28,145 bases of DNA from Pigoraptor vietnamica (lineage: Eukaryota; Opisthokonta; Filasterea): contig CALSCQ010001250.1 in the NCBI GenBank assembly GCA_943704525.1, positions 1 to 28,145 on the forward strand, read 5' to 3'. The notes under the pieces were generated by a model. The model saw only the letters and a list, made by a program, of their open reading frames with translations, was not told where the DNA came from and did no database searches. Position numbers and translations under genes: made by a program. Below are positions 1 through 28,145 of the stretch, in pieces (positions within the stretch are counted from its first letter, which is position 1; each line of letters begins with the position of its first letter).

Positions 1-630
1 GGGGAGGGGGGGAGGGGAGGGGGGGGAAGGATGCGCTCTACGTGTTATGTGAGAGAGGAGGTCGAGAAGAATGAAGAGTGTTCTGACCGTGTCGCGGAGC
101 ACACCTGTGCTCAACTGATACAGTATTGTAAATTGTCGGCTGCCACAGAATGTCATGAAACCCCAACCTTTTGTTAAACTCCTCTTTGATTCGAAATACA
201 GCGACACACTGACGGTGAGTAATGGTAACGGCTACGCTCTTACTTCACTTACTACACTGGCAGAGCCTGTGACCTCATGTTCGCAAGACGAGTCATGTGG
301 ACAGCTGTTCGACAGCATTATTCGAATGGTAATGCTAGCAGGCGCGACTCGGCCCGTTCGCTGCCGGCTACAGAACTACGGCCGAAATCAGCTTCCGTCA
401 ATGCCGAGCCATGCAGGGCGGCGGCCAAAGACCACTCTCAGTGCAAAGCGCCATGTTTCTCACCGAGTGAACGAGAGAGAAAGGGCAAATGGACGCGTGC
501 ATTCTTAAAAGTGCCTTGGGCAAAGCGCCGATAATTATTGTGGAGTGCCGATGACACTGGCAGCGACGGTGCCGGACACTGCGGAGGCCGGTGTGCGTCG
601 GGAACGAACGACTGAGGACGCCCACAGCCT
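1..630. other. 3' flank of TMEM134-like gene; no gene supported
   Basis: The first 30 bases are almost pure G with A interruptions, a purine tract that could end an intron or a low-complexity spacer. It lacks a telomeric repeat period. The rest has several short open frames on both strands, but none has a recognisable domain, a consistent splice partner or protein-like composition. The segment must hold the 3' untranslated region of the minus-strand gene ending at 631. Nothing else could be identified. Confidence 0.5.
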
Positions 631-9093: not shown

Positions 9094-10495
9094 CTTCCCT
9101 CCGCCCCGCGCAAGCGCTTATCCAGCGCAACGCCGAGAGACGAGGGAGGAGGGGGATAGCGACCGCCGCTTACGTCAAGCGAAGGCGCCCCCCACGGCAA
9201 GCCCACGCGGGCCGCCTAGTGTCGTGCGGATGTCCGCAGTCCGTCGCTTAGGTCATCCTGAGGGAGAAAGGCGGGGATGGCGCCCCATTCCCGTGAAGCC
9301 GCCGCCGGCAGCCACCCGAGTCGCCCAGCGAGCGCGAGCCCAAATAGGGCGCGTAATCGGGAAGGGATTAGGCCGGAAAATGTGCGGGTGTGCGTGTATG
9401 TCGGCGTGGGGTGTTTCGGTGCGCGTCTTATGTCGAGAGTCACAGAGAGACAGAGCGACACGAAAATGCGCCGCAGAAAGTGAATAATCCCCCAACGGTA
9501 TGCAGCTACACTCGATAAGAAGAGGAGCCGATGTCAAACAATGGAGAATAGGCGTGCACGTTCGCTCATGTACGCGCGGACGTCCTGCTCCAACAGCGAG
9601 GTCGAGAGAGAAGGAGTGAATGGGGTGTGTGCGGCGTGTGCGGAGAGAGATGCAGCGCCGTGCTCACAGTTTGGCCGTGGGATGGAGAAGGGACAGAGAG
9701 AGAGTTTGGGGTGAGGTGGGTGTTACGAAGCGGGTGCGACTCGAGGGATTACAGTGGAAACGGATGAATTTTTGTCAGAAAACTGGGTGCGAGAGTCAAT
9801 ATAACAGAACGAGTCCACCACCACGGAGAGCAGCGATTGGTGTGGGAAAAATAATCCGCGAATGTCATAGTCATTCCATAGTGAGCGAGTGACAGAAATC
9901 AGCGACAATTAAGGGCGGACGTGTGCTGACGTGCGGCTTCTGGGTACGATTCAATTATTATAAATTTGTATTGAATAAGTACATGATATAACAGAATTGA
10001 ATTTAGGTTGATATCCTTATATGGCAAGTAGTCAGCTGCGTCATCCATGCCTGGCAACGATCCGTTGCCCAGGCACCCAATACAAAATGTATGGAGAGCG
10101 CAAACCCACACCTTGCGTTGCATCTCATACACAATGTATTGAAACGGGTAAACCCCCACCTCTACCCATAAAACTTGGCTAACACCCACTCTTCCTTCCA
10201 ATGTAACATCCACCTTCCACCTACGCTAAACCCTCACCCTGGCCTCGTAGAGTATATTGGCAAGAATGCGCCGCATTTCGGCTTCGAAATTCGCCGCGGA
10301 CATTTTAGAGAGGCGCGTGCGATTAGCCGTCGGCAGCACGGCAAGCCACCGGCGCCGTTGTATCCCCCTTCACGCTCTCCTATGTCACTTTGAGCTGACG
10401 CCGACGGCTTGCACAAGCCCCGCCGAGAACAGCAAGCCCTGTTAAAAGCCCACGCCAGATCTACTCTAGGGTCCAGCTCTATTTACTGCTCCGCA
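9094..10495. other. Intergenic region, 1.4 kb, with an AT-rich patch and inverted repeats
   Basis: This is the 5' flank of the kinase gene and the 3' flank of the receptor-like gene, both on the minus strand. An AT-rich segment spans about 9945-10020, in contrast to the GC-rich surroundings, and is followed by two inverted repeats (10049-10074 and 10078-10141). Just past the receptor gene's stop codon, the minus strand carries AGTAAA near 10481-10486, a possible polyadenylation hexamer. Open frames here are short and show no recognisable domain or splice partners. Confidence 0.5.
10049..10141. repeat. Two adjacent inverted repeats (stem-loop-forming)
   Basis: The first repeat has arms GCCTGGCAACG (10049-10059) and CGTTGCCCAGGC (10063-10074) around a 3-base loop, perfect except for one extra C. 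The second has 16-base arms at 10078-10093 and 10126-10141, matching at 13 of 16 positions with the mismatches together in the centre. They lie about 1 kb upstream of the kinase start codon. They could be a small non-autonomous element remnant, a transcription-factor palindrome (GGCAAC/GTTGCC are RFX-type half sites) or chance. Confidence 0.6.
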
Positions 10496-13400
10496 TCACG
10501 GGGCCTCCTCGACCGTGTGTGGGAGAGTGACGGTTGCGATCTCCTGTCCATCCGCAGCCACGTCCCATCGCTCCTCGGGGCGCTCTTCCTGTTGCGCACT
10601 CAGGGTGGGAAGGTTCCGGATTGTTTCGACCTCCTTTGGGAGCGACCCGACGCTTATCCGGTAGCTGTCCACGGCCGATCGCACGCTGGCGGACGCCAAG
10701 CTGTGCGAGCCAGTCCCGCTGTAGTCCCTGTACGCGAGCATCGCGATCAACATGGACGCGATGTTCTCGAGATAGACCGTCTCGTCGCCGCGTGCGAGCC
10801 TGAACAGCCCGAGCACGGCCTGGTTCTCGGCCGACACGAGCCCCTGCAGGAACTTCTCGTCGCCGGGCGTCAAAATTCCCTCGCTGAGGAACCTGTGCGA
10901 CGGACGCCGAGTGGTAGACGCATTAGGCACGGACAACAGCGCACACGTCGCACGCATCCCTTGCTCACTTTGAGAGCAGACTCGACGGCGTCGCCTCCTC
11001 CTGCCGACCGGCCGGCGAAAGCAGCGTCATCGATCGCTTGTGGTGGGGCGCCTTGGCTTCGGCGAGCGTCGCCTGTGCGCTTGCTCCGGTGTCTGAAGCA
11101 TGTGCTTCCGGGTGGCCGCCGCTGAGGATGTTCGACGTGGGCCGGCGCGGAGTGGTTCGCTTGGGCGTGACTGTGAGCGCAGAGTAGTCGTTGATTGTCT
11201 CGAGGAGGTCGCGGAGGCGCGTCGTCCGCCGGGCGTGCATGTCCTCCTCGTCGCGTATCATAACCTTGTACCTGGAAATATAACGCACGCAATCAATTGC
11301 GGATGTCGCGCCAAGAGTACGCGAGAGAGCGGGCTGTGTGCGTGAGGACGCGTGCGTGGGTGTATGAAATTGAAAGGTATTGCGCGCAGCACGTGCAGCA
11401 CAAGTCTGTCGAGTTACACGCGCGTGCGTGCCCTCCACTCACTTGAGGGATATGTAGACGATTCCGCCCACGACCAGCGAAATCCATCCGCACGGCAGCA
11501 CAATCACAAGCCACACGCCCTCGCCGTTGTCGCCCTCCGCCTCCCGTCCCATCACCACCACCTGCACCACAGCGCACGTTAGGGCATTGGACGCATTTCA
11601 AAAGACGGCGGCACATAGCAGTCACACAGACCCGTAAAAAACATACCCCAATTATATAGTCAGGACACACGCGCGCACGCATACACACCGCTGGGAGGAC
11701 ATGCACCAACAGAGCGCACAGTACGCACCGCAGTGAACGCGCCGAGGGCAAAGGCGATGGCGCGCAGGTGGTTGACCCAGTCGAGACCGCACGGGCGGAA
11801 GCGCAGAATGTACGTGAACGTTCCGAGCGTGAGGACGAACATGATGGCAAGGTGTGCCCACGGGACATTCCACAGGAACACGCGCGACACGACCATCGCG
11901 ATCTTGACCCACGACTCGAGCACAAAGAACGTGCGCGTGTAGCGAATGTCGAGATTGTCGAGGAGGTCCTGCCACAGCGGCGCCGTGTACAGCGCGAGCG
12001 GCCAGAAGATGAGGGCAACGAGGGAACACACGGCGTACGCCCAATGGATACCGCTCCAGCACGGCGTCTGCGGTGGCGGAGAGTAAGTGTGCGTTAGATG
12101 TGTGGCAGCAAAGCTCACGGGGTGAGCGCCAAACCGTCTGTGCGACTCTAATCCGAACCATGAGGCGCGTGGATGAGGAGGGCAAGATTGAAGCGTGTGC
12201 GCCTACGTCACAGGGCACAAAACACGTACGACCACATCTGCCACTTGCGCAAATGGCCCACCGTGCACATGCCCTCCGTCTCCATGAAGCCGCCCGCGTC
12301 AATGTACGAGCAGCGATAGCTCGCGAGGAGCGTCGAGAGAATGGGCATGTAGCCGATGGTACTCAGCACGGGGAGGAGGTACGTGCTCGGGAACATCAGC
12401 ACGCGGCCGATCGCGTTGCGCGAAATCGCAATGTCCGCATGCGTGAGCACGCACACGGCGTACGTCGTCCACACAAATGCACCGCAGAACATCAGCCAAT
12501 AGTACCTGGGTGTTGAGAGTGGGAGAGAGACGGGTGCGCATGTTAGACTCGTACTGGAGGCCACACGCACTTGCGAGACTTCGCACACCTACTGCAACGC
12601 ACACGGCCAATACGACGACCAACGCGCGCCACGCACCACTCAAACGAGAAATTGAGACCGCCCGCCGACGTTATTCGCCAGAGCGTCGCGGCGAGGCCGT
12701 AGTCGATCTGTGCGGCGAGGACGAGCTGCACAATCTGCACGCCCTCAATCACTATCATGCCGACTTGCAGCCAGTTGATCAGCGACGGCCGCATGAACGC
12801 CCGCTTGTTCTCCACCACGCGCGCGCCGTAGTGCGTGTACCCGAGCTGGCGCAGGCGATAGAGCACGTACGGCGGCATGAGATTGAACTCGGCCGATACG
12901 AAAATCGCCACGATAATGAGGAAAGCGACACCGCCCTTGTTGGCATGCACGGCGCGCGAGAGCCCCCTCAAAATTCCGCGCCCTTCCTGCTCCAGTAGGT
13001 CGCACGCCGGGACGACATACACAACCGCTGCGTCGGGCGGGGAGCTGTAGTTTCCAACAAAGAAAACCTTCGTCTCGGCGTAGGGACTGGACGCCGCCCC
13101 GCCCACCCCACCCACGAGCACGACCATAGGGCGAGGGTCCGGCGTGCACACGTCCACGACAAGGAACGCGGCCGTGTCGGGATATACGCACGCCTGCGCG
13201 TAATCCGCCTGACGCACACGCACGACAGCGAACGACTGCAGCGGTTGCGACAGCGAAAGTGTGCGCGCCGTGGGCAACCACGCGTTTCGAGACGCCGAAT
13301 ACAGGTACGATGCTGCGCTCGCGCCGGCTTCACCCACACCCCCAGTGAAGAGAATGCGCTCGGAATCGAGCAGAATCGCCGTGTGGCGATAGAGCTCCGG

Positions 13401-15035
13401 CGCCGCCACAGCCCCCAGGCGAAGGGTTGGCGACAGCTGCACCCACACACCCTGCGAGAGGCTGAAGATCCACGCGGCGTCCGACGCCGCGGTCACACCC
13501 TTGCCGCCGTGAAGGATCACGTGGGTTCCGTTAACCGCCACCAACACGGCACCCAGCAGCGGCGGGGGACGCGCGACAGACGAAATCGCGACCGTGTCCC
13601 ATGCCTCCGTGTCGAGGTTGAAGCGCAGCAGGTCGGACAGAAGTTCGCCCGACTGCGTGCGGCCGCCGTACACGAACACGGCGCCGCCCACCCGCGCGCA
13701 CGCGTGACTGTCGCGCGGGGTGCCCATGGACGACACCTGCGTCCACGGCCCGCCCGGCGTCAGCGACACGCGCCACGTGTCTCCCAGCACCACAGGGTCC
13801 ACTCCGGAGACTGTCTTTGTTCCCCCGAACACGTACATGCGCCCGTTGTGCGCAACGGCGCAATGGTACTTGCGCGCTGGCGGCAGAGGCCCCGTCGTGT
13901 TGAAGGGCTTCCAAGTCGGCATGTCGACGTCGAGCAGATACGTCGACGACAGCGAATTGCCGGTCGCAGCGTCCTCGCCCCCGAACACGAGAATGGAATC
14001 CGCGCCCGCGTCCACCGCCGTGTGCCCCGACAGACGCCGCGGAGGCTGGCCGTACGCAGGCAGTGTGACCCATGTCTCGTCGGTCGCGCGCTTTAGAGAG
14101 ACAAAATCGCCGTGGCTATCGACGCCAGAGAGAATGTTGCGCGAAGCGAGGCGCGAGACGTATTCGTCCACAATCTCCCGCCGGGGCTTGCTCACCGTCT
14201 GCAAGCAGCCGGTGGTGGAATCCACTTCGGACACGGACGTCGGCTGCAACAGCCGGTTGCACGTGGTCGTGCTCGAGCACGGCGACACCTGCACACCCCC
14301 CACGGCGGCATCCACGAGGCGATCGACCGCCTTGAACGGGGACCCCGCGACGACTTCTCGGAGTGAGAAGTACACGCCGATGTCCACTCTCTTCTCTGCG
14401 GAGGTGATGAGGAACTGCGCGCGCGGGTCCGACTGGTTCGCAAACGTCGTCAGCTTCTCGTCCGTATCGACCCCAATCACATACACGCCGTGGCCCGCGG
14501 CGTCAAAGATGGCGGTGGAAGACATGTGCCCCCCGACCCCGAATATGATCTCAACGCCCAGCGATATCATCCTGCGGGCGGGCGCACGCAGTGTCAGCCA
14601 CGGCGACCAATACACCCCTCGTCTCGTGAGGGCACGACGTGCGATGGACGCGGTATATGTGTGCATGGTTGGGGCGAGTGGAAGGGTTGGGCCGCAATTG
14701 CGTGGCAATGGAGACATAGCAACGAAGCGGCACAGGGGCATCTCACCTCGCGGTTGCGTTCCGCGCTATATCCTCATCCACGAACGACGGCACATACTGG
14801 ATGTGTATCACGCACGACGGGCACGTGCTCCGCGCGCCGAGATAGAAGCCGTTCGAGAGCTTCTTCACCGCAGCAAAGGGAAGCCCTGCGATGACGCCGA
14901 GCACGCCGTTCGACGAGAACAGACCCGCTGTGACGCCCGCGAGGAATCCGGCCTGAAAAACAACGCGACAGTGAGTTGCGGAACGGGGTTTGCGGTATAG
15001 CCGGAAAGCACACAGCATGCGCGCACGTGGCACAC

Positions 15036-15075
<40 letters not shown>

Positions 15076-15611
15076 ACACACACACACACACACACACACA
15101 GACACACACACACACCACCGAGGCGCATGCCCACCTCGTCTTCGGAGAACAGAACGCCTTGCACGTTCGTGACGCCCGGGGGTACGGGAGAGTCCACCAA
15201 CGTCCATGTCGTGTTGGGGTACGCAAGCGCGGCCTCCGTGGCCGACGCAGCAAACTGAAACCCCAGCGTAATATAGTGGCGGAAGAGACCGGACACGATG
15301 GCCGGGCGGAAGTCCTCTATTGTTATCGTTAGCGGCAGGGAGAAGTACACGCAGTTCGACGCCGGCAGTCCGGCCTCCGTCAGCGCCCGCGTGCATCCCG
15401 CGTACCCAAGCGCAACATAGGGCGCCACGCCGCCGTGCGAAAAATTCAAATTTCCCGCGCCGAACACCGCAACGCGAAAGTCTGGCGTGCGCTCCACGCG
15501 GGCGGCATCGGAGGGTATCGCAAGTGCGACTGCAAGCGCAACCGCCAGGCATGCGATGCCCACGTCGCCACACCGCCGTGCGACGTCCCTCATTTTCACC
15601 GCCGGTCGCAT
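10496..15611 (-). CDS. Receptor-like membrane protein: Bmp/PnrA-type domain, kelch propeller, polytopic region
   Basis: Eight exons join in frame to 1351 residues: 15611-15135, 14952-14747, 14571-12637, 12505-12226, 12067-11729, 11561-11443, 11271-10969 and 10892-10496. A second in-frame ATG at 15593 is an alternative start. After a signal peptide (IACLAVALAVALA), residues ~30-375 resemble the Bmp/PnrA/Med family of periplasmic nucleoside-binding proteins: FSEDEAGFLAGVTAGL, the VEIIFGVGG segment and GVYVIGVDTD. Residues ~394-680 hold about five kelch blades (NGRMYVFGG, GGAVFVYGG, ILFTGGVG). From residue 774 there are seven or eight hydrophobic helices (first GGVAFLIIVAIFVSAEF), then a ~230-residue cytosolic tail. 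By architecture it is a plasma-membrane sensor. Dictyostelium Grl receptors also join a Bmp domain to seven helices, but I see no class C GPCR signature here. The junction of exons 4 and 5 is the weakest splice call (GTGTTT donor). Confidence 0.85.
14955..15134 (-). repeat. Intron 1 of receptor-like gene with a long (TG)n tract on the sense strand
   Basis: The intron carries an almost pure CA dinucleotide run on the plus strand at 15031-15116, read as (TG)n in the pre-mRNA. It starts about 18 bases after the GTGGGC donor. Two interruptions split it. Intron placement is supported because exons 1 and 2 then join as EDE-AGFLAG, which matches the Bmp-family continuation. Confidence 0.9.
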
Positions 15612-16015
15612 TTTTGAGATAATAATGCGGCGGGGACCTACATTTGCTCCGGAAAGAGGCGTAGGCGCACGGCAGCAGTGGCGGAGACGGCGATTTGAGA
15701 GAGAGGAGAGGGGAACAAGCCGGCTTGACGATAAGAGACGAGGCTGTGATGATGCCCTCGACAGATTCTATGTGCGCACGCAATGTGTGGAAGAGAGCAA
15801 GCGTATAATTACGGGACAATAAACACGAGAGAGAGAAAAGGTAAGGTAAGGTACTGTCGCGGATGCCGGCGTGCAACACCACAGCTCGGACAATTTTCGT
15901 CCCGTTGGTGGGTGGCATTGGCACCAGGAGGTATTTATATTGCGCCAGCTGTGGGAATTTGCGAATAAAAAGTAACTGGTTTGAATACACAACGCCGGTG
16001 TGAACCAAATCATGG

Positions 16016-16029
16016 GCTACCATGGAGAC
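16016..16029 (+). promoter_or_regulatory. Candidate RFX X-box upstream of LRRC72-like gene
   Basis: GCTACCATGGAGAC matches 12 of 14 positions of the ciliary X-box consensus (GTHNYYATRRNAAC). The mismatches are at position 2 and in the second half-site. It lies about 400 bases upstream of the start codon of a cilium-associated gene. RFX factors control ciliary genes through such sites in animals. That this organism uses them is inference, and a 12 of 14 match can occur by chance. Confidence 0.3.
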
Positions 16030-16203
16030 GTAGTAGGTAATATCGCTATTAAGTATATTGCTACGAGCACCTGTATAGACGTAATGTATGCAATAATACT
16101 TAAATTGGAATGAATGCCAGTCCTATTATTGTCTCAGTATCGCAGCTGAAACACGCCGGTCCGCACATCTTCATTGGCGAACTCTCTTCCGAGCGTGCTG
16201 TGA

Positions 16204-18592: not shown

Positions 18593-19462
18593 GCGTTCGC
18601 GTCGCGTGTGCGCGTGTGGCGTCATGAGTATGCCGGCGAGCGGCTGCTCGTATCATGTGCTGAGTCGCTTTGTTGCGTCGCACGCATCATGCATACAAGT
18701 TTTTGCGGTACAGAAGTACAGTAGGTTGTCCATGTCAAGTCGGATTGAGACCGCAAGCCTCGTTCAATGGCGCGCGCGATCCATATCCGTACACACAGGA
18801 ACATGAGTCACTACGCTCTCGGCACCGCCCACGTCGCACGTGCTCGTTCACCGAGGATTGTGGGGGCTAACACATTCCGGAGTTTCGGGAGCTGTGGCAC
18901 AGGGTCGGTAGGCCGGTGTTCCACGCGTGCTGATTGGCTGAGGCAGCTGTCGCACAGCACCGCAGACACGGAACAGAAATGGAACGAATAGGAAACCGCA
19001 AGATGGTGTCTCCGTCCTACGCGGGCGAAAGGAGGAGTCTGTGTGTGACAGGGAGGAAGGTGGGGAAGCGCAGATAGGCTGGCACGGCCGGTGTCACGGT
19101 CCGAATTTGTGCCACGGTGAGTCCGGACACTCTATATTAAGATTAAAGGGACGTCCTAAAAAGGAAAGAGCTCTATAAATGGACTGGATTTGCCGAAATA
19201 AATTCCAAAAATAAGTCTTGTGATCGGCGGTTACCCGCGGCTGTGTCGCTCGATGCAACATCCGGGTGTCACTGTCTGACGTTGCACCGTTGGCTCACAC
19301 AATCAACAGCACTGCGAATCCCTTGGTATAAAAGATGGACGCTGCGGGAGACTCCATCCATCAGAACAACAGCCTCTCTTCCCCTCCGCGAAAAGAACGC
19401 TCTGAAAGCAAGACATTCCGCTTCGTATTTCGTCGACGACTGCGCTCGTCTGTGTCGCAGAG
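18593..19462. other. Intergenic region between LRRC72-like and Kazal-domain genes
   Basis: This holds the 3' flank of the LRRC72-like gene and the promoter of the Kazal-domain gene. A CCAAT box in reverse (ATTGG) sits at 18933-18937, and a TATAAAT at 19174-19180 seems too far upstream to be the working TATA. The stronger candidate TATA box is listed separately. No ORF with recognisable content was found. Confidence 0.5.
19327..19333 (+). promoter_or_regulatory. TATA box of the Kazal-domain gene
   Basis: A perfect TATAAAA lies 130-136 bases upstream of the start codon of the Kazal-domain gene. Transcription would be expected to begin about 30 bases later, near 19357, giving a leader of about 100 bases. 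It is the only clear TATAAAA at a plausible distance from a start codon in this window. It suggests a strongly or conditionally expressed gene. Confidence 0.6.
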
Positions 19463-21208
19463 ATGAAGACCTTCGTGGTTCTCGCTTTGCTGGCGGCCGC
19501 TGCCCTTGTGGTTGCACAGGACGGCGTCACGTGCGACTGTCCCAACGACTTCCACCCCGTGTGTGCTCCGGGGGCCAACGGGACGCGTACGACTTACGAC
19601 AACGCGTGCGTCGCCAAGTGCCGTGGCGCCGAGAACTGGCGCAATGGCACGTGCGAGCACTTCCCCGTCGAGCCCCGATGCTTCTGCCCCCTTATTCCTC
19701 GTCCCGTCTGCGCCATTCGTTTCGTCCCTCGCGGCGCGAAGCTCGAGACGATGACGAACGACTGCGTTGCCAAGTGCGAGCACGCCGAGATCCTCCACGA
19801 CGGTCCGTGCCCCCCGTTCCCCAAGTTCCCCGTCGTCCCCTGCATCGCGAGCCAGGAGTGGCGCCCGGTCTGCGCCGAGACGGCCGACGGCGACAAGAAG
19901 GACTTCGCGAACGCTCAGGCCGCGTGGTGCGCTAACGCGAAGGTCGTGAGCCGCGGTCGCTGCAACGCGACGGAGGACGAACTCGCTCTTCTCGCCGCTC
20001 CCGAGGGCGCTCTTGCCGAGATGCCCCCGTCCCCGCGCCCCGAGATGCCCGAAGGCATGAACGGGGAGTGGCCCAACCAGCACGACAACGCGCTCTTCCC
20101 TATGGGCCACGGAGGCTTTGACGACTGCTCGGGCGGCCAGGGTGGCTTCGGACCCCAGCAGGGCGGCTTCTTCCCTCCGGGCGCGCCGGGCGGCTTCGGT
20201 CCCCAGCAGGGTGGTCAGGGTGGCTTCGGACCCCAGCAGGGCGGCTTCTTCCCTCCGGGCGCGCCGGGCGGCTTCGGACCCCAGCAGGGTGGTCAGGGTG
20301 GCTTTGGACCCCAGCAGGGCGGCTTCTTCCCTCCGGGCGCACCGGGCGGCTTCGGACCTCAGCAGGGCGGTCAGGGCGGCTTCGGACCTCAGCAGGGCGG
20401 TCAGGGTGGCGTCGGACCTCAGATGGGTGGTCAGGGCGGCTTCGGACCTCAGATGGGTGGTCAGGGCGGCTTCGGACCTCAGATGGGTGGTCAGGGCGGC
20501 TTCGGACCTCAGATGGGTGGCCACGGCGGCTTCGGTCCCCAGCAGGGCGGTCAGGGTGGCTTCGGTCCCCAGCAGGGTGGCCACGGCGGCTTCGGACCTC
20601 AGCAGGGCGGTCAGGGCGGCTTCGGTCCCCAGCAGGGCGGTCAGGGTGGCTTCGGTCCCCAGCAGGGCGGCCAGGGCGGCTTCGGTCCCCAGCAGGGCGG
20701 CCAGGGCGGCTTCGGACCTCAGATGGGCGGTCAGGGCCAGCAGCACGGTGGGCAGTTCCCCGGCGGTTCCTTCAGCCCCTTCCCCTCGTTCCCCTCGGCG
20801 CCTGAGCAGGGCAACGGTCGCCAGGGCGGTCGCTGCGGCGGTCGCGGTTTTGGTGCCCCGATGGTCTACGGCCAGGCGGGCATGGGGTTCGCGTCCACTG
20901 CGCCGTTTGGCGGTCGCATGGAGGGCGGTCGTGGCGGCGAGCATAACGACAAGATGCTCATCGCGGTCCTTGCGCTCTCGAGCCTTAGCATTGTCCTCAG
21001 CATTGCCGTCCTCGTCGTCGTCGTCCGCCTCGGCCGCTCGATGGGCTACATGCGCCTCCCCTCGCGCGGGTCTGTGAGCGACATTGCGCCGCCGTCGTAC
21101 GCGAGCAACAAGGGCACGCCCAACGGGTCAACGACGAAGGTCGCCCTCGGCGACGCTTTCGAGCGTGTGCCTGTGTTTGAGCGCCAGGTCTCGACCGAGC
21201 AAGTCTAA
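19463..21208 (+). CDS. Kazal-type multidomain single-pass membrane protein with Gly/Gln repeat stalk and PPxY tail
   Basis: This is an intronless gene of 581 residues. A signal peptide (MKTFVVLALLAAAALVVAQ) is followed by three Kazal-like modules at roughly 24-64, 73-116 and 127-167. The first has the family pattern best preserved (CPNDFHPVC, TTYDNACVAKC). Kazal domains inhibit serine proteases or serve as extracellular binding modules; the reactive site cannot be inferred. Residues ~220-430 are a stalk of 10-residue GGFGPQQGGQ repeats, preceded by three longer units with GGFFPPGAPG. A hydrophobic helix at ~498-521 is followed by a 60-residue cytosolic tail with PPSY at 543-546, a PPxY motif that binds WW domains such as those of Nedd4-type ubiquitin ligases. 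This makes it a type I surface protein, possibly adhesive or protective. Codon use is strongly GC-biased, consistent with high expression. Confidence 0.9.
   Translation: MKTFVVLALLAAAALVVAQDGVTCDCPNDFHPVCAPGANGTRTTYDNACVAKCRGAENWRNGTCEHFPVEPRCFCPLIPRPVCAIRFVPRGAKLETMTNDCVAKCEHAEILHDGPCPPFPKFPVVPCIASQEWRPVCAETADGDKKDFANAQAAWCANAKVVSRGRCNATEDELALLAAPEGALAEMPPSPRPEMPEGMNGEWPNQHDNALFPMGHGGFDDCSGGQGGFGPQQGGFFPPGAPGGFGPQQGGQGGFGPQQGGFFPPGAPGGFGPQQGGQGGFGPQQGGFFPPGAPGGFGPQQGGQGGFGPQQGGQGGVGPQMGGQGGFGPQMGGQGGFGPQMGGQGGFGPQMGGHGGFGPQQGGQGGFGPQQGGHGGFGPQQGGQGGFGPQQGGQGGFGPQQGGQGGFGPQQGGQGGFGPQMGGQGQQHGGQFPGGSFSPFPSFPSAPEQGNGRQGGRCGGRGFGAPMVYGQAGMGFASTAPFGGRMEGGRGGEHNDKMLIAVLALSSLSIVLSIAVLVVVVRLGRSMGYMRLPSRGSVSDIAPPSYASNKGTPNGSTTKVALGDAFERVPVFERQVSTEQV
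20127..20745 (+). repeat. Coding repeat array: 78-bp units then 30-bp units
   Basis: Three copies of a 78-bp unit (encoding GGFFPPGAPGGFGPQQ plus linker) are followed by more than a dozen copies of a 30-bp unit encoding GGFGPQQGGQ. A run of five consecutive copies has Met replacing the second Gln (PQM). Synonymous variants (GGACCC, GGACCT, GGTCCC) are shared in blocks between neighbouring copies, as expected from unequal crossing-over. Confidence 0.95.
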
Positions 21209-21372: not shown

Positions 21373-21430
21373 TAGTTGAAAGAATAGTTTGAAACGGCGC
21401 TTAGTTGAAAGAATAGTTTGAAACGGCGCT
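21373..21430. repeat. Perfect 29-bp tandem duplication
   Basis: Two identical, directly abutting 29-bp copies beginning TAGTTGAAAGAATAG occupy 21373-21401 and 21402-21430. The unit itself contains a short internal echo (TAGTTGAAA, TAGTTTGAAA). It lies past the probable 3' end of the Kazal-domain gene. Confidence 0.95.
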
Positions 21431-21998
21431 TAGTCATGCCGAGACTCACATGCAACGCGTCTGCCATTGGACTCAGGGGCAGCCCACGGCCAGCCGTGTG
21501 GCCAAGATCTACAGCCGCAAACCACTCGACCAACAGTTAGAAGTGACCCGTAACAACAGTAACAACCCGTCCTTATGTCCCATCTTAGGAGCCGCGGCAT
21601 TCAGAGAGCTGTGTTTCAGCGTGTCGTCCGGTCGGCCGCCGCGCCAGTCTGCATGCTGGCGCCACAACCCACGTGACAAGCAAATTTAATTGAAATTGGC
21701 CATTATTTCTGACATATTTTCTACTTTTTCAAATTAAAGTGCGCAAGTGCCTTGGAGTGACGCTGCTGATTGCCGGCCACGGCTAAATGCTGAGACGCTC
21801 ACAAAAGTCGAGTTGCTTCGGCTTTGATCTATAGGCACACGATCCGAAACTCTCTCGCAAAGACTCGGCTCCGCTTGAATAGAAGAGGGGCGTCGTCTGT
21901 GTTGGCTGGAGAATTGGCATGTGTGCGCATCCTCGGTAACTGCGCCTGTGTGGCGTCGCATTCCCTCGCGTGCAAGCACATAAGGAGAGAAGAGAGCC

Positions 21999-24394
21999 AT
22001 GGACTGGAGGACGGCGCTCGCAACGGCGATTCGCCACCGCGTCGCCATGGCGCCAACACCCGTCGCGCAACCGCCCGACCTGTCTGCGTATGGGCTCGCC
22101 GGTGGCATGCCGACGGATGTGGGGCTGGCCGCGTTTCAGCAGCAGCTCGCGGCGTCGTACGGACATCCGCACCACATGCAGGCTCAAGTGGATGCGGCGT
22201 CCACCGTGGACATGGTGAGTGTTCTCTGCGAGTGTGCGGAACGCGTTTAAGAAGTGTGCGAGTGGACAGTATTGGCGGGAATCTGATGCGGACCCGCGCG
22301 TAGGTCGATATCGACTCTGCGCTGGGGCTTCAGTCGTCCGACCTCTTCCTTGGGTTTGAGGACTTCGCGGGGATGGAAAACAACGCGGCTGCGTTTGGAT
22401 TTGATGGTCACGACACGGCGATGGCCACGACGGCCGACCCGTCGTCGTCCAGCCCCGAGTCGCCCTTCTCGGCGGGCAGTGATCGCGTGCCTTCCGGGGC
22501 CAGCGGTGAGTCTGTCAAGCCGCTCACCTGTCGCCGTTCGCAGCAGATGTCGAGGGGTGCTAATTTGGCGCACGTATGATGTCGGTTATTCTTAGCGCAC
22601 ATACTCACGCCATTCGCACATACTCACGCCACTCGCACATACTCACGCCATTCGCACATACTCACGCCATTCGCACATACTCACGCCATTCGCACATACT
22701 CACGCCATTCGCACATACTCACGCCATTCTTACATACTCACGCCATTCGCACATACTCACGCCATTCGCACATACTCACGCCATTCCTTCGATGCAGCTG
22801 GGGGATCGCCGCACGCGGGAATGGCGGCCAAGCGCCCGCGCGCGTCCCCGGAGTCCGTTGCGCCGGACGTGCGGCGTTCGTCGCACATTGCGGCCGAGCA
22901 GAAGCGGCGCAACAACATCAAGGAGGGCTTCAACGACCTCCGTAACCTCGTTCCCGCCTGCCGCCCGCACGACTCGAAGGCTGCCATTCTGAAAAAGGTG
23001 ATGAACCCATTATGCTCTTTTTTTTCTTTCTTTCTTTACTGTCGTACCCTTTCCCTGCTCTCACACTGTCATTGTATGGCGGCCTTCTGCACGGCTCTGA
23101 CTCGATTGTCCTGCTGTCTTCACTCCAGGCGGGCGATTACATTGTCTTTCTCAAGAAGAAGAAGGCCGAGCGGGGCGAAATTGACGAGGGCGACGAGCTG
23201 CGCCGCCGCATGCGCTTTGCGATCGAGTACATTGCGTGCCTCAAGCGACAGAAGGGTGTGCTCCTGGAGCAGATCGGCCGCGCCAAGTCCGAACTCGCAC
23301 GCGCCTCCCGCACACTGGCCCAGTGTGCGTGTGCGGCGGACGGCGCAGACGTCTCTGCGAAGCTCGCGGCGACTGTCGAGGCGATCACATCGGCGGCCGC
23401 TGGGACAGGCGACAGCGTCGATTTGGAAACAAAGGTCGCGGCCGTTCCTACCCCGACTGTCGATGCCCCCGCCCGGCCCGCGGCTGTCGGTGCGGCGGCG
23501 GCGACGGCTGAGGTCGAAGCGTACGAGAGCGACGATATGCCGGACATGGCATCGCGGGTGGTGGAGGACAGTCTTGTTCCGACGGAGGGCGGCGCGGGGA
23601 AGGGCGGGATGTCGCCGATTGTGCGCATTCAGACGCAGGAAGTGCTGCCGAGCGGGATGAAGCTGCTGGCGATCATGGTGCTGTTTGTGTTTGCGGTGAT
23701 GAACCCGCCCGAGCAGCCGAAGCACGACCGCGGGACGATTATCGGCATGCGGCAGCTGCAGGAGTATTTTGAGGGCACAACGACCACCGCCGTCGCCACC
23801 GCCATCGCATCGTACATCACCTACATTAGCTCGGTGGGTGCTCCGCGCTATCCCCTGTCGTAATCTGCGGGGATCCGTGCGGTTGTTGTGTTTGTCTCGC
23901 ATTTGGGCTTACTTTGTGCGCCCATTTGGCTTACTTTATGTGTGCCCATTTGGCTTACTTTGCGTGCGCCTTGTTTTGGCGGCTGCAGATTCTCCTGCGC
24001 ATCGCGTGCTTCCTGTTCGCTCTCTTCCTTAGCTGGCGATATGTGCTGGAGGCCCCGAGCACAGTGCAGCCCAGTAGCCGGCGCTTCAACCTCGCTCTCG
24101 AGGAGCGCCGCAAGGGCACGAAACGGTGCGTGGCCGTGAAAGTTGTTTATTTCCGTCATCTTGGAAGTGAAGACTCAATGGCGCGTCTCACAGGCTTATT
24201 GCGGCGCGATGCGCGGACACTGCGGAGCGCCATTTTCTCAACGCGCTCGCCTACTTTGACTGCTCCGCGCCGCCGTCGAGTCGGCTGGGCCTCGTCATTG
24301 CGCTGGGTGTGGAGATATTCATCCAGGTTGGGCTTGCATGCATGCTTTCAGTCACGTCACTGCGCGCGTGTGTGTGTGTATGTGTGTGTGTGTG

Positions 24395-24444
<50 letters not shown>

Positions 24445-26493
24445 GTGTTACATTGTGATGTAGTGTTATAGTCTGACATGCCGCCTCCTGCAGCTGACAC
24501 ACATCATGAAGTGGGGCCAGTTGCTCGCGCGGTACTCGGTCGCACGCAGCGGCTCTGAGGTGACGACGGAGGAGTGCGCCAAGACGTACTTGTCGCTCAA
24601 CCAGGTGCGACGAAATACTTTATAGACGCTTGGCAACTCAATTTGTGTGTTTGCATTTGGTGACTCAATTGAATCTTGACATCCTTGCGAATGCAGCTGT
24701 ACTTTGCGGACGCGACGGACGTGCCCCTCGAGGGCTGGGTGTGCCTGCTCAAGGCCATCAACTTTGCCGAGTCCACGGAGCCCAGCCAGACGCTCGCAAA
24801 GGCCTACTCGATACTCGCGTTCCAGCTTGCGTTTCGCCTCGGCGGCGGTCGTCTTGTGCGCGTGCCCGTGTCGTGCCTCGCCCGGATGTACCGCCGTCGC
24901 GCCGCGCACACGGGCATGCAGACGAAGGTCTCCGAGCAGACGCGCGGGTGAGTGAACTTCTCGGTATTTTCTCATTCACGATGCAGCTTTCACCGCACCC
25001 TCCTTCTCTGTTTATAGAAACCTGGACTAATGCGCGCTATGTGCGCAGGTACATCTCGCTTTTGGACGCCTGGGAGTTTGCCGCGTGCGGCGACGTCGAC
25101 GCTGCCGCATCTCGCTTTGAGAAGGCGTCCCAATTTTACGCGCAGTCGGGCCTCAAGATGATGGCGTGGGAGGTGCGTCATTGTTGTAGTGTCTGTTGGG
25201 TGCGGTTCCGTGCGGCTGACTGAGTCAACTGTACCCGCGCCAGGCTCGTGTGTTCCAGGGCTTTGCACTTGCCACGCACGGCCGTGTGCGCGAGTCGATC
25301 GACTGCGTCCGCACCATCCAGGTGAGCCCTCGTGTTATAGCTTTCGGCAACTTGGGGATGTCTCCCAGATGCGTGCGAAAGGTGTTCATTTTATTCGGTC
25401 TGCACAACAGGCTTTGGGACTCGACGATGGCAGCAACGAGCAGACGTGGTGGACCCGCATGTGCCTTGCGACGTGCCTTGCGCACGACGAGTCAATCACG
25501 AGTACACAGGAAATCTTGGAGGTCCGTTGAGGCTGTTGCGCGATTTGGTGTTGCACGTGGCTCACATGTGCTGTGTTTTGCAGGACTGCCGCGCGATCGA
25601 GGGCGAAGTGCGCGACACGGCCTGGCGGGACAGTGGCCACATCCGCGCGATGCTGTCTGCGACAGTGTCCGCGTGGACGCGCTTCCGCACGCGCGCGGAC
25701 GATGATACCGTTGTGGACGAGTGCGACCGCGCCCTTCGCCTCATCCGCGCCGCCAAGCCAATCAGGTCTGTTGCATCGCTGTTTGCCATGTGTGCATAAT
25801 CACCGCTCGGCCATCGTCGAGAAGGGGGTTTCTGTTTTTACAACTTTCTGACCGTAGTATTCGTCCCGCAGCTTTGCCGTCTGCTTTTTGGGATATTCGT
25901 TTGTGGGTGAGATCCTCATGTCCTTTTGGGAGCGCTACCTCGTCTCACCACCCGACGGCGGCTTCGACGGTCCGCTCGCAACGCGCGTGCGGAGGTTGGC
26001 GCGACAGAGCACGGCGGCTCTGCGGACGTTGAGCGAGTCTGGATTCGCTTTCGCGCGTCCGCGTTCACTTCTTCACAGCGGTCGTTTCCGCATTCTGTGC
26101 GGGCAGAAGGAAAAGGGTACGTATGTGTGCGCGTTTTGTGGGGGTTATCAACACAATAGCTTACGGCGAACTCCACCGTCTGCAGGCATGGAGCTTCTCA
26201 GTCGCTGCGTGCACGAGTCGCGTCGCTCGCGCTATCAGCTCGACGAGGGGCTGGCGCTGATGGAAGTTGGCAAGGCGTCCACAGGTGCGTTTTCAATTCA
26301 GCCTTCGCAGTCCACTTCCGTTACTGCCGTCACTTCCGTTACTGATGTCTCGACGCGTGCAGGCGATGTTGCCATTGCTGCCCTGGAGCTGTCGGCGTCC
26401 CTGCTTCGCGCGTCGGGCGCAGCGTACGAGGCCAGCGTGGGGGCCGAGTGCCTGAAGCGCGCGCTTGCGTCCAACTCGCGCGACTTCTCGTGA
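21999..26493 (+). CDS. SREBP: SREBP-like membrane-tethered bHLH-zip transcription factor
   Basis: Fifteen exons join in frame to 974 residues: 21999-22214, 22304-22505, 22798-22997, 23129-23833, 23989-24125, 24194-24326, 24494-24604, 24697-24947, 25049-25172, 25244-25321, 25411-25521, 25584-25765, 25872-26116, 26186-26284 and 26363-26493. The N-terminus is acidic and Ser/Pro-rich, as in activation domains. The basic region has H168, E172 and R176, followed by a helix-loop-helix and a zipper-like helix to ~270. Helix 1 (383-399, MKLLAIMVLFVFAVMNP) ends in Asn-Pro. A loop of about 30 residues and a second helix (~430-457, with IACFLFALFLSW) follow, then a ~500-residue helical C-terminal domain, possibly TPR-like. 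This order is that of SREBPs, which are held in the ER and released by site-1 and site-2 proteases to control lipid genes. Residue 175 is Arg, not the SREBP Tyr, so the basic region reads like Max/Mlx. A membrane-bound Mlx-like factor is the alternative. Confidence 0.85.
22599..22788 (+). repeat. 19-bp minisatellite, ten copies, at the 3' end of SREBP-like intron 2
   Basis: Ten head-to-tail copies of ACATACTCACGCCATTCGC, with a few single-base variants, end about 10 bases before the AG acceptor of the intron 22506-22797. Each copy contains TACTCAC, one base away from the TACTAAC branch-point consensus. The array makes up about two thirds of the intron. Confidence 0.95.
24361..24447 (+). repeat. 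(TG)n tract in SREBP-like intron 6
   Basis: About 80 bases of TG dinucleotides, interrupted once by TA and once by CG, lie inside the intron 24327-24493. The tract begins about 35 bases after the GTTGGG donor. As in the other two long tracts of the window, the sense strand is the TG strand. Confidence 0.95.
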
Positions 26494-26847
26494 AGCGCCG
26501 TGCGTAACAGCGCGTAACAATGAAGAGTCGCATTGCTATATTTGGGTATTCAGACTTTTTCAATCTATTTGTGGCTTTCGCGATTTATTTTCGGCAAATG
26601 GGGTTGTTGATGTCTGCTCGGCGGAGATTCAAAAACGCGTCTCTTTCACTAGCGACGGCAAAGGTGCCGTTCTTTCGCTATTTTATCGCTCTCCCATCGC
26701 TCAAGAGCATTGTCGGGACAACACATTGCAGGAGTGGCACGTTATTGTCTCGGCGTTTTAATTGATAGCGCCTGCGATTGGTGTGCTCATACGTGCGAGG
26801 AGCGCGCTTGCCGCGTGCGGGCTCTGCGGGGTTGCTTAGGGACGAAA
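26494..26847. other. Intergenic region between SREBP-like and MOB3-like genes
   Basis: This short spacer holds the 3' end of the SREBP-like gene and the promoter of the MOB gene. It is more AT-rich than the coding DNA. A reverse CCAAT box (ATTGG) lies at 26777-26781, about 70 bases upstream of the MOB start codon. No other element was recognised. Confidence 0.45.
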
Positions 26848-28145
26848 ATGTTCAAGCTCGACAAAAACAGGGTAAGCGCTGCTTATATTACACCTGTGCG
26901 CGCGTGTGTGTGTGTCGTGTGTGTTCGTTCGCATCGCACGCCCTATGGCTTTAGGTTTGTTATCGGAAGGATGGTTGTTTTCCATTCGCCCTCACGTGGC
27001 ATGCTATTGTTGTATTCGTGTTGCTGCTGTTTCCGTAGCGCACGGGTGAGGAGCGCGCTTCCAACCCCCGCCGCCAGTTGTAATGCGTTGCTTTTTTTTA
27101 TTCACCCTCGTGTTCATATTGTATTTGTGTTGCTGCTGTTTCATAGCGCATGGGTGGTGTTGTGGGCATCGAGGGCTCACTGCGAGGTGATATTTGCGCG
27201 CCACAGACATTCCGTCCGGCGAAGAAATTTGAGAAGGACTCGCTGCGGTACAAGCTGCTCAAGCAGACAAAAGCGTCGCTGGGCGTGGGCGAGCAGCTGC
27301 GCAACATTGTGCGGTTGCCGCAGGGCGAGGACCTCAACGAATGGCTTGCTGTTCACGGTGCGTTGCGTGGAAGAGCCGGCGATCTCAGTTGATTGTGCGG
27401 GTCTGTGAGGAGATGGGAGGGGGGAGCGGAGAGCGGGGGAGCGAGGGCGCGGGGGAGCGAGGGCGGGAGCGAGGGCGCGGGGGAGCGAGGGATAGCGTCG
27501 ATGGACGCTAATATGTTGCCATAAGGAACTGTGGAGATAGAGCTTCAGCGACGAGGAGGAGTCTTGCGGCGCTGTCGTGTGCTTATGGTCCACTGTTGCC
27601 TTTTTGCGCCGCAGTGGTCGACTTCTTCAACCGCATCAATCTGATTTACGGCACCGTCGGCGAGTTTTGCGATGAGAAGACGTGCCCCACCATGTCCGCC
27701 GGCAAGCAGTGGGTGGCTGCTGCTCTCGCCGTCTGATGTAGCCGTGCGCAATCTCATCGGACGTTGTTGACGTATGCGCGCGCGTACAAATTAGAGCACG
27801 AACGCTCCCACGCACGCACTCGCGCGCTTGCACGATCTGCGGTGTAATGCCACGTGGCCTGACACGAGCACCCCGCTGCCAGATATGAGTACCACTGGAT
27901 GGACGGCGAGAAGTACAAGAAGCCGACGTCGATGCCTGCGCACGAATATGTTGCGCTGCTCATGGAGTGGATTGAGCGGCAGGTGAACGACGAGGACATT
28001 TTCCCGTCCAAAGTCGGTGGGTGCTGAAGGGGCATTCCTGCGTCGTCGTACTTGCGGATGAATCGTCACGACGCTGCGCTTCTCTCTTCTATTTGGTGTT
28101 GTCCGCTTCTGGTGTGTGGGCAGTGGTGCTCAGCGGCGTATGTCC
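26848..28145 (+). CDS. MOB3: MOB kinase activator, MOB3-like (5' part; continues past window)
   Basis: Four exons are visible: 26848-26871, 27207-27357, 27615-27708 and 27883-28016, in frame. They give [79 protein letters not shown] and [10 protein letters not shown]. The order and wording are those of MOB proteins; [14 protein letters not shown] and KYKKPT favour the MOB3 group over MOB1. The two cysteines of EFCDEKTC are the first half of the family's zinc site. MOB proteins bind and activate NDR/LATS or MST-type kinases in the cytosol (Hippo/MEN-like signalling). The next family segment (PFPKNF) is not found before 28145, so the rest, about half of a ~215-residue protein, lies outside. An AG at 28123-28124 would give a non-matching continuation and is not taken as the acceptor. 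Confidence 0.95.
26980..27157 (+). repeat. Imperfect duplication within MOB3-like intron 1
   Basis: Two related segments, about 26980-27048 and 27094-27157, share CATTCGCCCTC/TATTCACCCTC and then GTGTTGCTGCTGTTT, ending near CGTAGCGCACGGG and CATAGCGCATGGG. The offset is about 110 bases. Both end in an AG that could act as a weak acceptor, but only the AG at 27206 gives a MOB reading frame. Confidence 0.6.
27411..27493 (+). repeat. G-rich repeat (GGGGGAGCGAGGGCGC) in MOB3-like intron 2
   Basis: A run of imperfect 14-16 base units such as GGGGGAGCGAGGGCGC occupies the middle of the intron 27358-27614. It has many G-runs of three or more at short spacing on the sense strand, as needed for G-quadruplex folding in the pre-mRNA. 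The G/A run at the first bases of the window has similar composition. Confidence 0.8.

What the first reader, a model, noticed from the sequence alone, without database searches (positions are those of the whole stretch)
22798..22997. SREBP-like membrane-bound bHLH factor with Arg instead of the diagnostic SREBP Tyr
SREBPs are set apart from other bHLH-zip factors by a tyrosine in the basic region, which lets them read sterol response elements as well as E-boxes. Here the basic region is HIAAEQKRRNN with Arg at that position (residue 175), as in Max and Mlx. Yet the protein has the SREBP membrane hairpin and a long C-terminal domain. It could be an ancestral SREBP from before the Tyr was fixed, a lineage-specific reversion, or an independent fusion of an Mlx-type bHLH to a membrane anchor. 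Each reading changes the picture of how sterol-regulated transcription arose.
Basis: partly seen in the sequence, partly recalled or inferred. Interest (0 to 1): 0.82.

Follow-up and report, generated by a model that had tools for sequence, protein, structure and literature searches.

The report
SREBP-like protein with MLX-type DNA-binding domain
An unidentified eukaryote appears to carry a membrane-tethered gene regulator built like the animal cholesterol regulator SREBP, but with the DNA-reading head of the sugar-response factors MLX/Mondo, which bears on how the two regulatory families arose.

Summary
A 15-exon gene (21999-26493, +) encodes 974 aa: acidic N-terminus, bHLH, long linker, two-helix membrane hairpin and a ~510-aa tail. 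The residue at the SREBP-Tyr position is Arg (176, not 175). It is not a lone Tyr-to-Arg change: 7 of 8 positions that separate MLX/Mondo from SREBP are MLX/Mondo-type, none SREBP-type. The bHLH groups with MLX/Mondo (96/91 after long branches were dropped; 82/88 before) and an SREBP placement is rejected, moderately (AU p = 0.022 and 0.035). The other half is SREBP-like: Asn-Pro in TM1, SREBP2-like spacing to TM2 (64 vs 64 aa), and a tail that aligns end to end with SREBP1/2 (mean z 4.0; best of 30 segments of unrelated real proteins 1.9). The end of HLH helix 2 and TM1 share one uninterrupted exon. Best reading: an SREBP-type, protease-released regulator whose head should read CACGTG E-boxes, not sterol elements; either the families share a membrane-bound ancestor or a head was swapped. 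Weak points: references mostly recalled from memory, tail similarity modest and missed by several tests, organism unknown, nothing measured.

The parts
21999..26493 (+). whole coding region, 15 exons, 974 aa plus stop: 21999-22214, 22304-22505, 22798-22997, 23129-23833, 23989-24125, 24194-24326, 24494-24604, 24697-24947, 25049-25172, 25244-25321, 25411-25521, 25584-25765, 25872-26116, 26186-26284, 26363-26493
   Evidence: 14 GT-AG introns, sites chosen by hand, one open frame; coding frame has the highest GC3 in 15 of 15 exons and no stop but the terminal one
22191..22366 (+). acidic/hydrophobic N-terminal stretch (about residues 65-93, DAASTVDMVDIDSALGLQSSDLFLGFEDF, interrupted by intron 1), candidate activation domain
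   Evidence: read from the sequence; resemblance to the SREBP N-terminus is by eye and recalled, not tested
22872..22997 (+). bHLH: basic region, helix 1, loop and first part of helix 2 (residues 165-206)
   Evidence: Pfam HLH 165-214, E = 4.8e-12; MAX 4.8e-09 and SREBP-1a 5.8e-05 in the PDB search
22905..22907 (+). codon CGG, Arg176, at the position of the SREBP Tyr
   Evidence: alignment; residue number
23129..23161 (+). rest of bHLH helix 2 (AGDYIVFLKKK), at the start of exon 4
   Evidence: the same uninterrupted exon runs on to TM1
23654..23710 (+). transmembrane helix 1 (~residues 382-400, GMKLLAIMVLFVFAVMNPP)
   Evidence: hydropathy up to 2.25 (window 378-396)
23702..23707 (+). Asn398-Pro399 near the lumenal end of TM1, as in recalled SREBP1/2 TM1 (the motif's role in site-2 cleavage is recalled, from no call)
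23711..23833 (+). predicted lumenal loop (~residues 401-441) with candidate site-1 sequences R407-G-T-I and R414-Q-L-Q
   Evidence: read from the sequence printed; cleavage not testable here
23989..24051 (+). transmembrane helix 2 (~residues 442-462)
   Evidence: hydropathy 1.83 for 442-460, up to 2.08 for 436-454
24052..26490 (+). C-terminal domain, residues 463-974, spread over exons 5-15, collinear with the SREBP regulatory domain
   Evidence: no Pfam family and no relevant PDB sequence match, as is also true of the recalled human SREBP2 tail

Best explanation
The gene encodes an SREBP-architecture, membrane-tethered transcription factor whose DNA-binding head is of MLX/Mondo type. Proposed mechanism: the protein sits in the ER (or Golgi) membrane as a hairpin with both ends in the cytosol. 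The C-terminal domain holds it, probably through a SCAP-like partner. On a lipid or sterol cue it is cut in the lumenal loop and then inside TM1 near Asn-Pro. The N-terminal half enters the nucleus and binds class B E-boxes (CACGTG) through His169, Glu173, Arg176 and Arg177. It should not read the asymmetric sterol element that the SREBP Tyr permits. Shown here: the gene model, the uninterrupted exon from helix 2 to TM1, the MLX/Mondo likeness of the bHLH, and a hydrophobic hairpin. Supported statistically, with mixed tests: homology of the hairpin and tail to SREBP. Inferred: topology, escort, cleavage, nuclear entry, E-box preference and sterol or lipid control. For history, an MLX/Mondo-type head on an SREBP body fits best: either a shared membrane-bound ancestor of both families or a head swap in this lineage.
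For: Gene model. Exon 4 alone holds the end of helix 2 and TM1 in one frame. bHLH: of 22 references (mostly recalled) the best are bigmax and MLX, 29 of 52 identical each; then Mondo 27, ChREBP 26, MLXIP 23, MAX 22; SREBF1 19. 7 of 8 diagnostic positions MLX/Mondo, 0 SREBP, 1 neither. Tree of 19 rows, four long rows and the Tyr column removed: window with MLX+Mondo 96/91, window+SREBP rejected p-AU 0.022; 23-row tree 82/88 and p-AU 0.035. Hairpin, landmarks set by eye: Asn-Pro to TM2 end 64 aa (SREBP2 64, SREBP1 66); TM2 end to the S-x-L-x-L stretch 54 (52, 52). Residues 377-640 versus SREBP2: 78, shuffles 24.9 (sd 8.4), 0 of 1000 full and 0 of 1000 local shuffles reach it. Whole tail: 0 of 500 full shuffles reach the score for SREBP2 or SREBP1 under any of three gap settings; local shuffles 0 to 5 of 500. 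Specificity: global mean z 4.03 against a maximum of 1.89 among 30 segments of real E. coli proteins, helical-repeat MalT and BcsC included; local 2.67 against 1.48. Arg at this position favours the E-box and Tyr allows both sites: passages of PMC6329520.
Against: Tail similarity is modest and not every test sees it. A profile HMM of the two SREBP tails did not rank the window above shuffles (363 of 370 scored full shuffles and 340 of 342 scored local shuffles did as well or better). Local alignment to SREBP1 was not significant (34 of 300; 138 and 175 of 1000). The anchored SREBP1 alignment was reached by 38 and 86 of 1000 shuffles. hhalign gave probability 2%, E = 0.024, only just above the best of 150 shuffles (25.31 versus 25.18). 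Match enrichment at SREBP1=SREBP2 columns was within the null range (25 and 22 of 200). Two more hydrophobic stretches in the tail could mean a different topology. Most references were recalled from memory. No fungal SREBP and no protist bHLH is in the tree; short bHLH domains give low support for SREBP and MLX in published trees too (PMC5064789, passages). No classic RxxL site-1 motif. SCAP, INSIG, S1P and S2P could not be sought (genome not held).
Confidence: 0.7

Rival explanations
1. A true SREBP ortholog in which only the diagnostic Tyr reverted to Arg; the rest of the bHLH is ordinary SREBP.
For: SREBP-like hairpin and tail; the bHLH also matches SREBP-1a in the PDB search (5.8e-05).
Against: 0 of 8 diagnostic positions are SREBP-type, 7 are MLX/Mondo-type; the SREBP placement is rejected with the Tyr column left out (p-AU 0.022).
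Confidence: 0.08
2. An MLX/Mondo-type factor independently fused to an unrelated membrane anchor and helical tail; the SREBP likeness is convergence.
For: The bHLH is MLX/Mondo-type; several tests of the tail are weak or negative (and SREBP1).
Against: Hairpin spacing and Asn-Pro match SREBP; the tail aligns end to end with both human SREBPs better than 30 of 30 real decoy segments and all 500 full shuffles at each setting. No likeness to MLX/Mondo C-terminal domains (425, 227 and 493 of 500 shuffles reach the scores), while MLX versus MLXIPL as positive control is clear (0 of 500).
Confidence: 0.15
3. A false joint: two genes (a soluble MLX-like factor and a membrane protein) merged by the gene model or the assembly.
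For: No transcript is at hand; splice sites were chosen by hand; the intron before exon 3 is largely a 19-bp tandem repeat array (22596-22786), where assembly could slip; exon 3 is joined to exon 4 by one predicted splice.
Against: The end of bHLH helix 2 and TM1 are in one uninterrupted exon (23129-23833). The Pfam HLH match runs across the exon 3/4 junction (165-214, junction at 206/207). All 15 exons share coding composition. The repeat lies upstream of the basic region, not between bHLH and membrane part.
Confidence: 0.05

Closest known systems
SREBP (animal SREBF1/SREBF2, fly SREBP, C. elegans SBP-1; fungal Sre1/SrbA not compared by sequence)
   Same: Order of parts: acidic N-terminus, bHLH, linker, membrane hairpin with Asn-Pro in TM1 and near-identical spacing to TM2, long tail collinear with human SREBP1/2.
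   Different: Arg instead of the hallmark Tyr; bHLH otherwise MLX/Mondo-type; no classic RxxL in the loop; tail similarity modest; no DUF2014 match (the ascomycete SREBP tail domain, PMC3894159, passages).
MLX / Mondo (MLX, bigmax, MondoA, ChREBP)
   Same: bHLH with H-x-x-A-E-Q-K-R-R and the best identity and tree placement; Arg where SREBPs have Tyr.
   Different: Membrane hairpin and SREBP-like tail present; no similarity to the MLX/Mondo C-terminal domain.
MAX / MYC
   Same: Group B bHLH, Arg at the Tyr position; MAX is the best PDB match.
   Different: No membrane anchor (recalled); lacks the Ala-Glu-Gln of the MLX/Mondo basic region; outside the window's clade in both trees.

Membership tests
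SREBP | Tyr in the basic region in place of Arg | tested here: not met
   Arg176. PMC6329520 (passages) uses this Tyr as its inclusion criterion.
SREBP | bHLH groups with SREBP bHLHs | tested here: not met
   groups with MLX/Mondo; SREBP placement rejected, p-AU 0.035 and 0.022; references mostly recalled
SREBP | two-helix membrane hairpin after the bHLH, Asn-Pro in TM1 | tested here: met
   hydropathy (which also shows two weaker hydrophobic stretches in the tail); Asn398-Pro399 and spacing 64 aa versus 64/66 (SREBP references recalled)
SREBP | C-terminal regulatory domain homologous to SREBP1/2 | tested here: met
   0 of 500 full shuffles and above 30 of 30 real decoy segments; weak or negative in other tests (SREBP1)
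SREBP | site-1 protease sequence RxxL in the lumenal loop | tested here: inconclusive
   only RGTI and RQLQ, read from the sequence
SREBP | SCAP, INSIG, S1P and S2P in the genome; sterol-dependent cleavage | not testable with these tools
   own genome not held
MLX/Mondo | basic region H-x-x-A-E-Q-K-R-R and MLX/Mondo tree placement | tested here: met
   (MLX/Mondo references recalled)
MLX/Mondo | C-terminal dimerisation/cytoplasmic-localisation domain | tested here: not met
   425, 227 and 493 of 500 shuffles reach the scores; positive control passes (references recalled)
MLX/Mondo | Mondo N-terminal glucose-sensing region | not tested
   no reference sequence was compared

The most novel reading that the evidence does not exclude
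SREBP and MLX/Mondo, the sterol and the carbohydrate arms of animal lipogenic control, descend from one membrane-tethered ancestor. This protein keeps that state: a pre-Tyr, E-box-reading head on an SREBP body. MLX/Mondo would have lost the membrane half, and SREBP would have gained the Tyr later.
Probability: 0.22. Interest if true: 0.85.

Novelty: new variant of a known kind. Interest (0 to 1): 0.62.

Why it matters
The Tyr is treated as the mark of the SREBP family, and a phylogeny of 198 fungal SREBPs admitted only Tyr-bearing proteins (PMC6329520, passages). A membrane-bound SREBP-type factor with Arg would be missed by such a survey. If this protein works as its anatomy suggests, regulated membrane release came before, or is separable from, sterol-element recognition. 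It also puts the SREBP body and the MLX/Mondo head in one molecule, although animals keep them in separate factors that both drive lipid synthesis (recalled). That makes the order of events (anchor first or Tyr first) testable by sampling protists by tail and hairpin instead of by Tyr.

Tried and rejected
Relatives: viral-contig scans with the bHLH and the tail and one genome-contig scan with the bHLH found none; by their descriptions these collections hold viral and prokaryotic contigs, so this says nothing about how widespread the protein is among eukaryotes. Own genome: not held, so no search for SCAP, INSIG, S1P, S2P or a second SREBP/MLX gene. Pfam and PDB sequence searches of the tail gave nothing relevant, but the recalled human SREBP2 membrane-plus-tail region also gave 0 Pfam families and no relevant PDB hit, so that silence is uninformative. 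A two-sequence HMM of SREBP tails failed as a detector. Own-promoter regulation: a CACGTG lies at 21670-21675, 329 bp before the ATG, but CACGTG is no more frequent in the window than by chance (19 versus 16.25 expected; 28 of 100 shuffles have as many) and a sterol-element-like pattern is at chance (1 versus 1.31), so nothing is claimed. Considered and rejected: lone Tyr-to-Arg reversion; false gene joint; DUF2014-type ascomycete tail (no Pfam match). Literature: seven searches and passages of eight papers (no paper was read whole). These listings and passages show no membrane-bound SREBP with Arg or with an MLX-type bHLH; the listings are capped and only open-licence PMC papers are held, so this is not proof of absence in print. 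PMC4342549 (Capsaspora transcription factors) was not held.

Full report
What is there. The window looks eukaryotic: its genes are split by introns. ARAGORN found no tRNA and Rfam no family at its gathering scores. On the + strand, 15 exons from 21999 to 26493 join through 14 GT-AG introns (mean 112 bp) into one open frame of 974 aa; I chose the splice sites by hand to keep the frame. As a check not used in that choice, the coding frame has the highest GC at third positions in 15 of 15 exons, with no stop but the terminal one. The finding's coordinates are exon 3 exactly.

The head. Pfam HLH matches residues 165-214 at E = 4.8e-12. In the PDB the best match is MAX (4.8e-09) and SREBP-1a comes later (5.8e-05); no chain named MLX or Mondo is among the matches, also not when recalled human MLX was the query. 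Against 22 reference bHLHs, mostly recalled, the closest are bigmax and MLX (29 of 52 identical each), then Mondo (27), ChREBP (26), MLXIP (23), MAX (22) and CBF1 (22 of 50); SREBF1 has 19. At the 8 ungapped alignment positions where at least 4 of 5 MLX/Mondo and at least 3 of 4 SREBP sequences each agree but differ from one another, the window has the MLX/Mondo residue at 7, the SREBP residue at 0 and neither at 1. The 23-row tree puts it with MLX/Mondo, with the long-branch yeast INO4 inside (82/88); holding it with SREBP is rejected at p-AU 0.035, while holding it with exactly MLX+Mondo costs 1.5 log units (p 0.25). After seeing this I dropped four long rows (INO4, PHO4, MXD1, TFAP4) and the Tyr column: MLX+Mondo+window is supported 96/91 and window+SREBP is rejected at 0.022. 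These p-values are only moderately below 0.05. The Arg is therefore part of a wholly MLX/Mondo-type head. Limits: 66-68 columns, no protist references, no fungal SREBP, references recalled. Published bHLH trees also report low support for the SREBP and MLX subfamilies (PMC5064789, passages).

The joint. Exon 4 (23129-23833) begins inside HLH helix 2 (AGDYIVFLKKKK) and runs without interruption into TM1 and the lumenal loop. The link from helix 2 to the membrane anchor therefore needs no splice prediction. The basic region (exon 3) is joined to helix 2 across one 131-bp intron; the Pfam HLH match runs across that junction.

The body. TM1 (about 382-400) ends in Asn398-Pro399. With landmarks set by eye, from the residue before Asn-Pro to the end of TM2 is 64 aa, against 64 in SREBP2 and 66 in SREBP1; from there to the S-(R/H)-L-x-L stretch is 54 against 52 and 52. 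Residues 377-640 align globally with SREBP2 at 78, while 1000 shuffles average 24.9 (sd 8.4) and none reaches it, nor does any of 1000 locally shuffled versions; with SREBP1 the score is weak (38 and 86 of 1000). The whole tail (461-974) beats all 500 full shuffles for both SREBPs under three gap settings; locally shuffled versions reach it 0 to 5 times in 500. As a check that helical proteins do not simply score well, I used 30 segments of the 28 complete E. coli CDS of at least 514 aa in three fetched stretches, MalT and BcsC helical repeats included. In global mode their mean z reaches 1.89 at most and the window's is 4.03; in local mode 1.48 against 2.67, the latter carried by SREBP2 (4.44) with SREBP1 at 0.91; the reversed window is not among the 12 top rows printed for either mode.

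Results against. A two-sequence HMM did not separate the window from shuffles (363 of 370 scored full and 340 of 342 scored local shuffles did as well or better), and local alignment with SREBP1 was at chance, although with SREBP2 only 1 and 2 of 1000 shuffles reached the score (0 of 300 and 34 of 300 for SREBP2 and SREBP1). hhalign gave 2% probability with a score just above the best of 150 shuffles (25.31 versus 25.18). Window matches were only slightly enriched at columns shared by SREBP1 and SREBP2 (Fisher 0.03, but 25 and 22 of 200 shuffles did as well). Two more hydrophobic stretches in the tail (515-538 and 815-836) could be membrane helices, which would change the topology. I take homology of hairpin plus tail to SREBP as likely (about 0.8), not proven. 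The MLX/Mondo C-terminal domain was not found.

How it most likely works. Hairpin with both ends cytosolic, tail-mediated retention, loop cleavage then intramembrane cleavage near Asn-Pro, and nuclear entry of the head: all by analogy with SREBP (recalled knowledge), none tested. DNA target: class B E-box CACGTG. PMC6329520 (passages) states that most bHLH proteins have Arg here, that it salt-bridges a conserved Glu and underlies E-box contacts, and that Tyr prevents this and lets SREBPs bind a second, asymmetric site. With Glu173 (by alignment) and Arg176 both present, E-box-only reading is the prediction. No clean heptad zipper is seen; a charged break (ERGEIDEGDE) separates helix 2 from a later hydrophobic coil (heptad read-out). 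The dimerisation mode is open.

Membership. By the Tyr criterion it is not an SREBP, and by its head it is not grouped with them; by body and order of parts it works like one. By head it is MLX/Mondo-like, but it lacks their C-terminal domain. I therefore call it an SREBP-architecture factor with an MLX/Mondo-type head, a new variant.

History. Two readings remain: a shared membrane-bound ancestor of SREBP and MLX/Mondo, with Tyr gained later, or a head swap in this lineage. The window, MLX and Mondo form an unresolved three-way fork in both trees, which fits either. The host's place among eukaryotes, unknown here, would weigh heavily: Tyr-type SREBPs occur in animals and fungi, so a host outside opisthokonts favours the first and one inside favours the second.

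Noticed in passing
window 22596-22786: 19-bp tandem repeat, 10.1 copies at 96% match, filling much of the 292-bp intron just upstream of the basic-region exon.
   Followed up: no
window 12543-16122 (-): Minus-strand frames with a Bmp/PnrA-type ligand-binding domain (E = 2.6e-10), Kelch repeats (9.1e-50) and by eye several membrane helices; probably one gene that looks like a surface receptor.
   Followed up: partly
window 26830-28020 (+): Next gene downstream is MOB1/phocein family (three exons joined by hand, Pfam 2.1e-42).
   Followed up: partly
window 3870-4451 (-) and 7656-9117 (-): A protein kinase fragment (activation-loop part, Pfam 4.4e-16) and an ankyrin-repeat gene (2.2e-19 and 7e-08 in two frames) on the minus strand.
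   Followed up: no
window 19406-21208 (+): Secreted-looking protein with Cys-rich N-terminal modules (Kazal-like by eye, no Pfam match), a 30-bp tandem repeat (13 copies) coding a Gly/Gln-rich array and a C-terminal hydrophobic helix.
   Followed up: no
window 23129-23270, residues 207-253: A second stretch resembling helix 2 (FAIEYIACLKRQK, by eye like AGDYIVFLKKKK) follows roughly 30 residues after the first; it could be a duplicated helix 2 or chance.
   Followed up: no
window residues 515-538 and 815-836 (exons 6-7 and 12-13): Two hydrophobic stretches in the tail (19-residue hydropathy up to 1.92 and 1.66) that might be further membrane helices or buried helices of the tail domain.
   Followed up: no
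window 21373-21434: Exact 29-bp direct duplication (2.1 copies, 100%) upstream of the gene.
   Followed up: no
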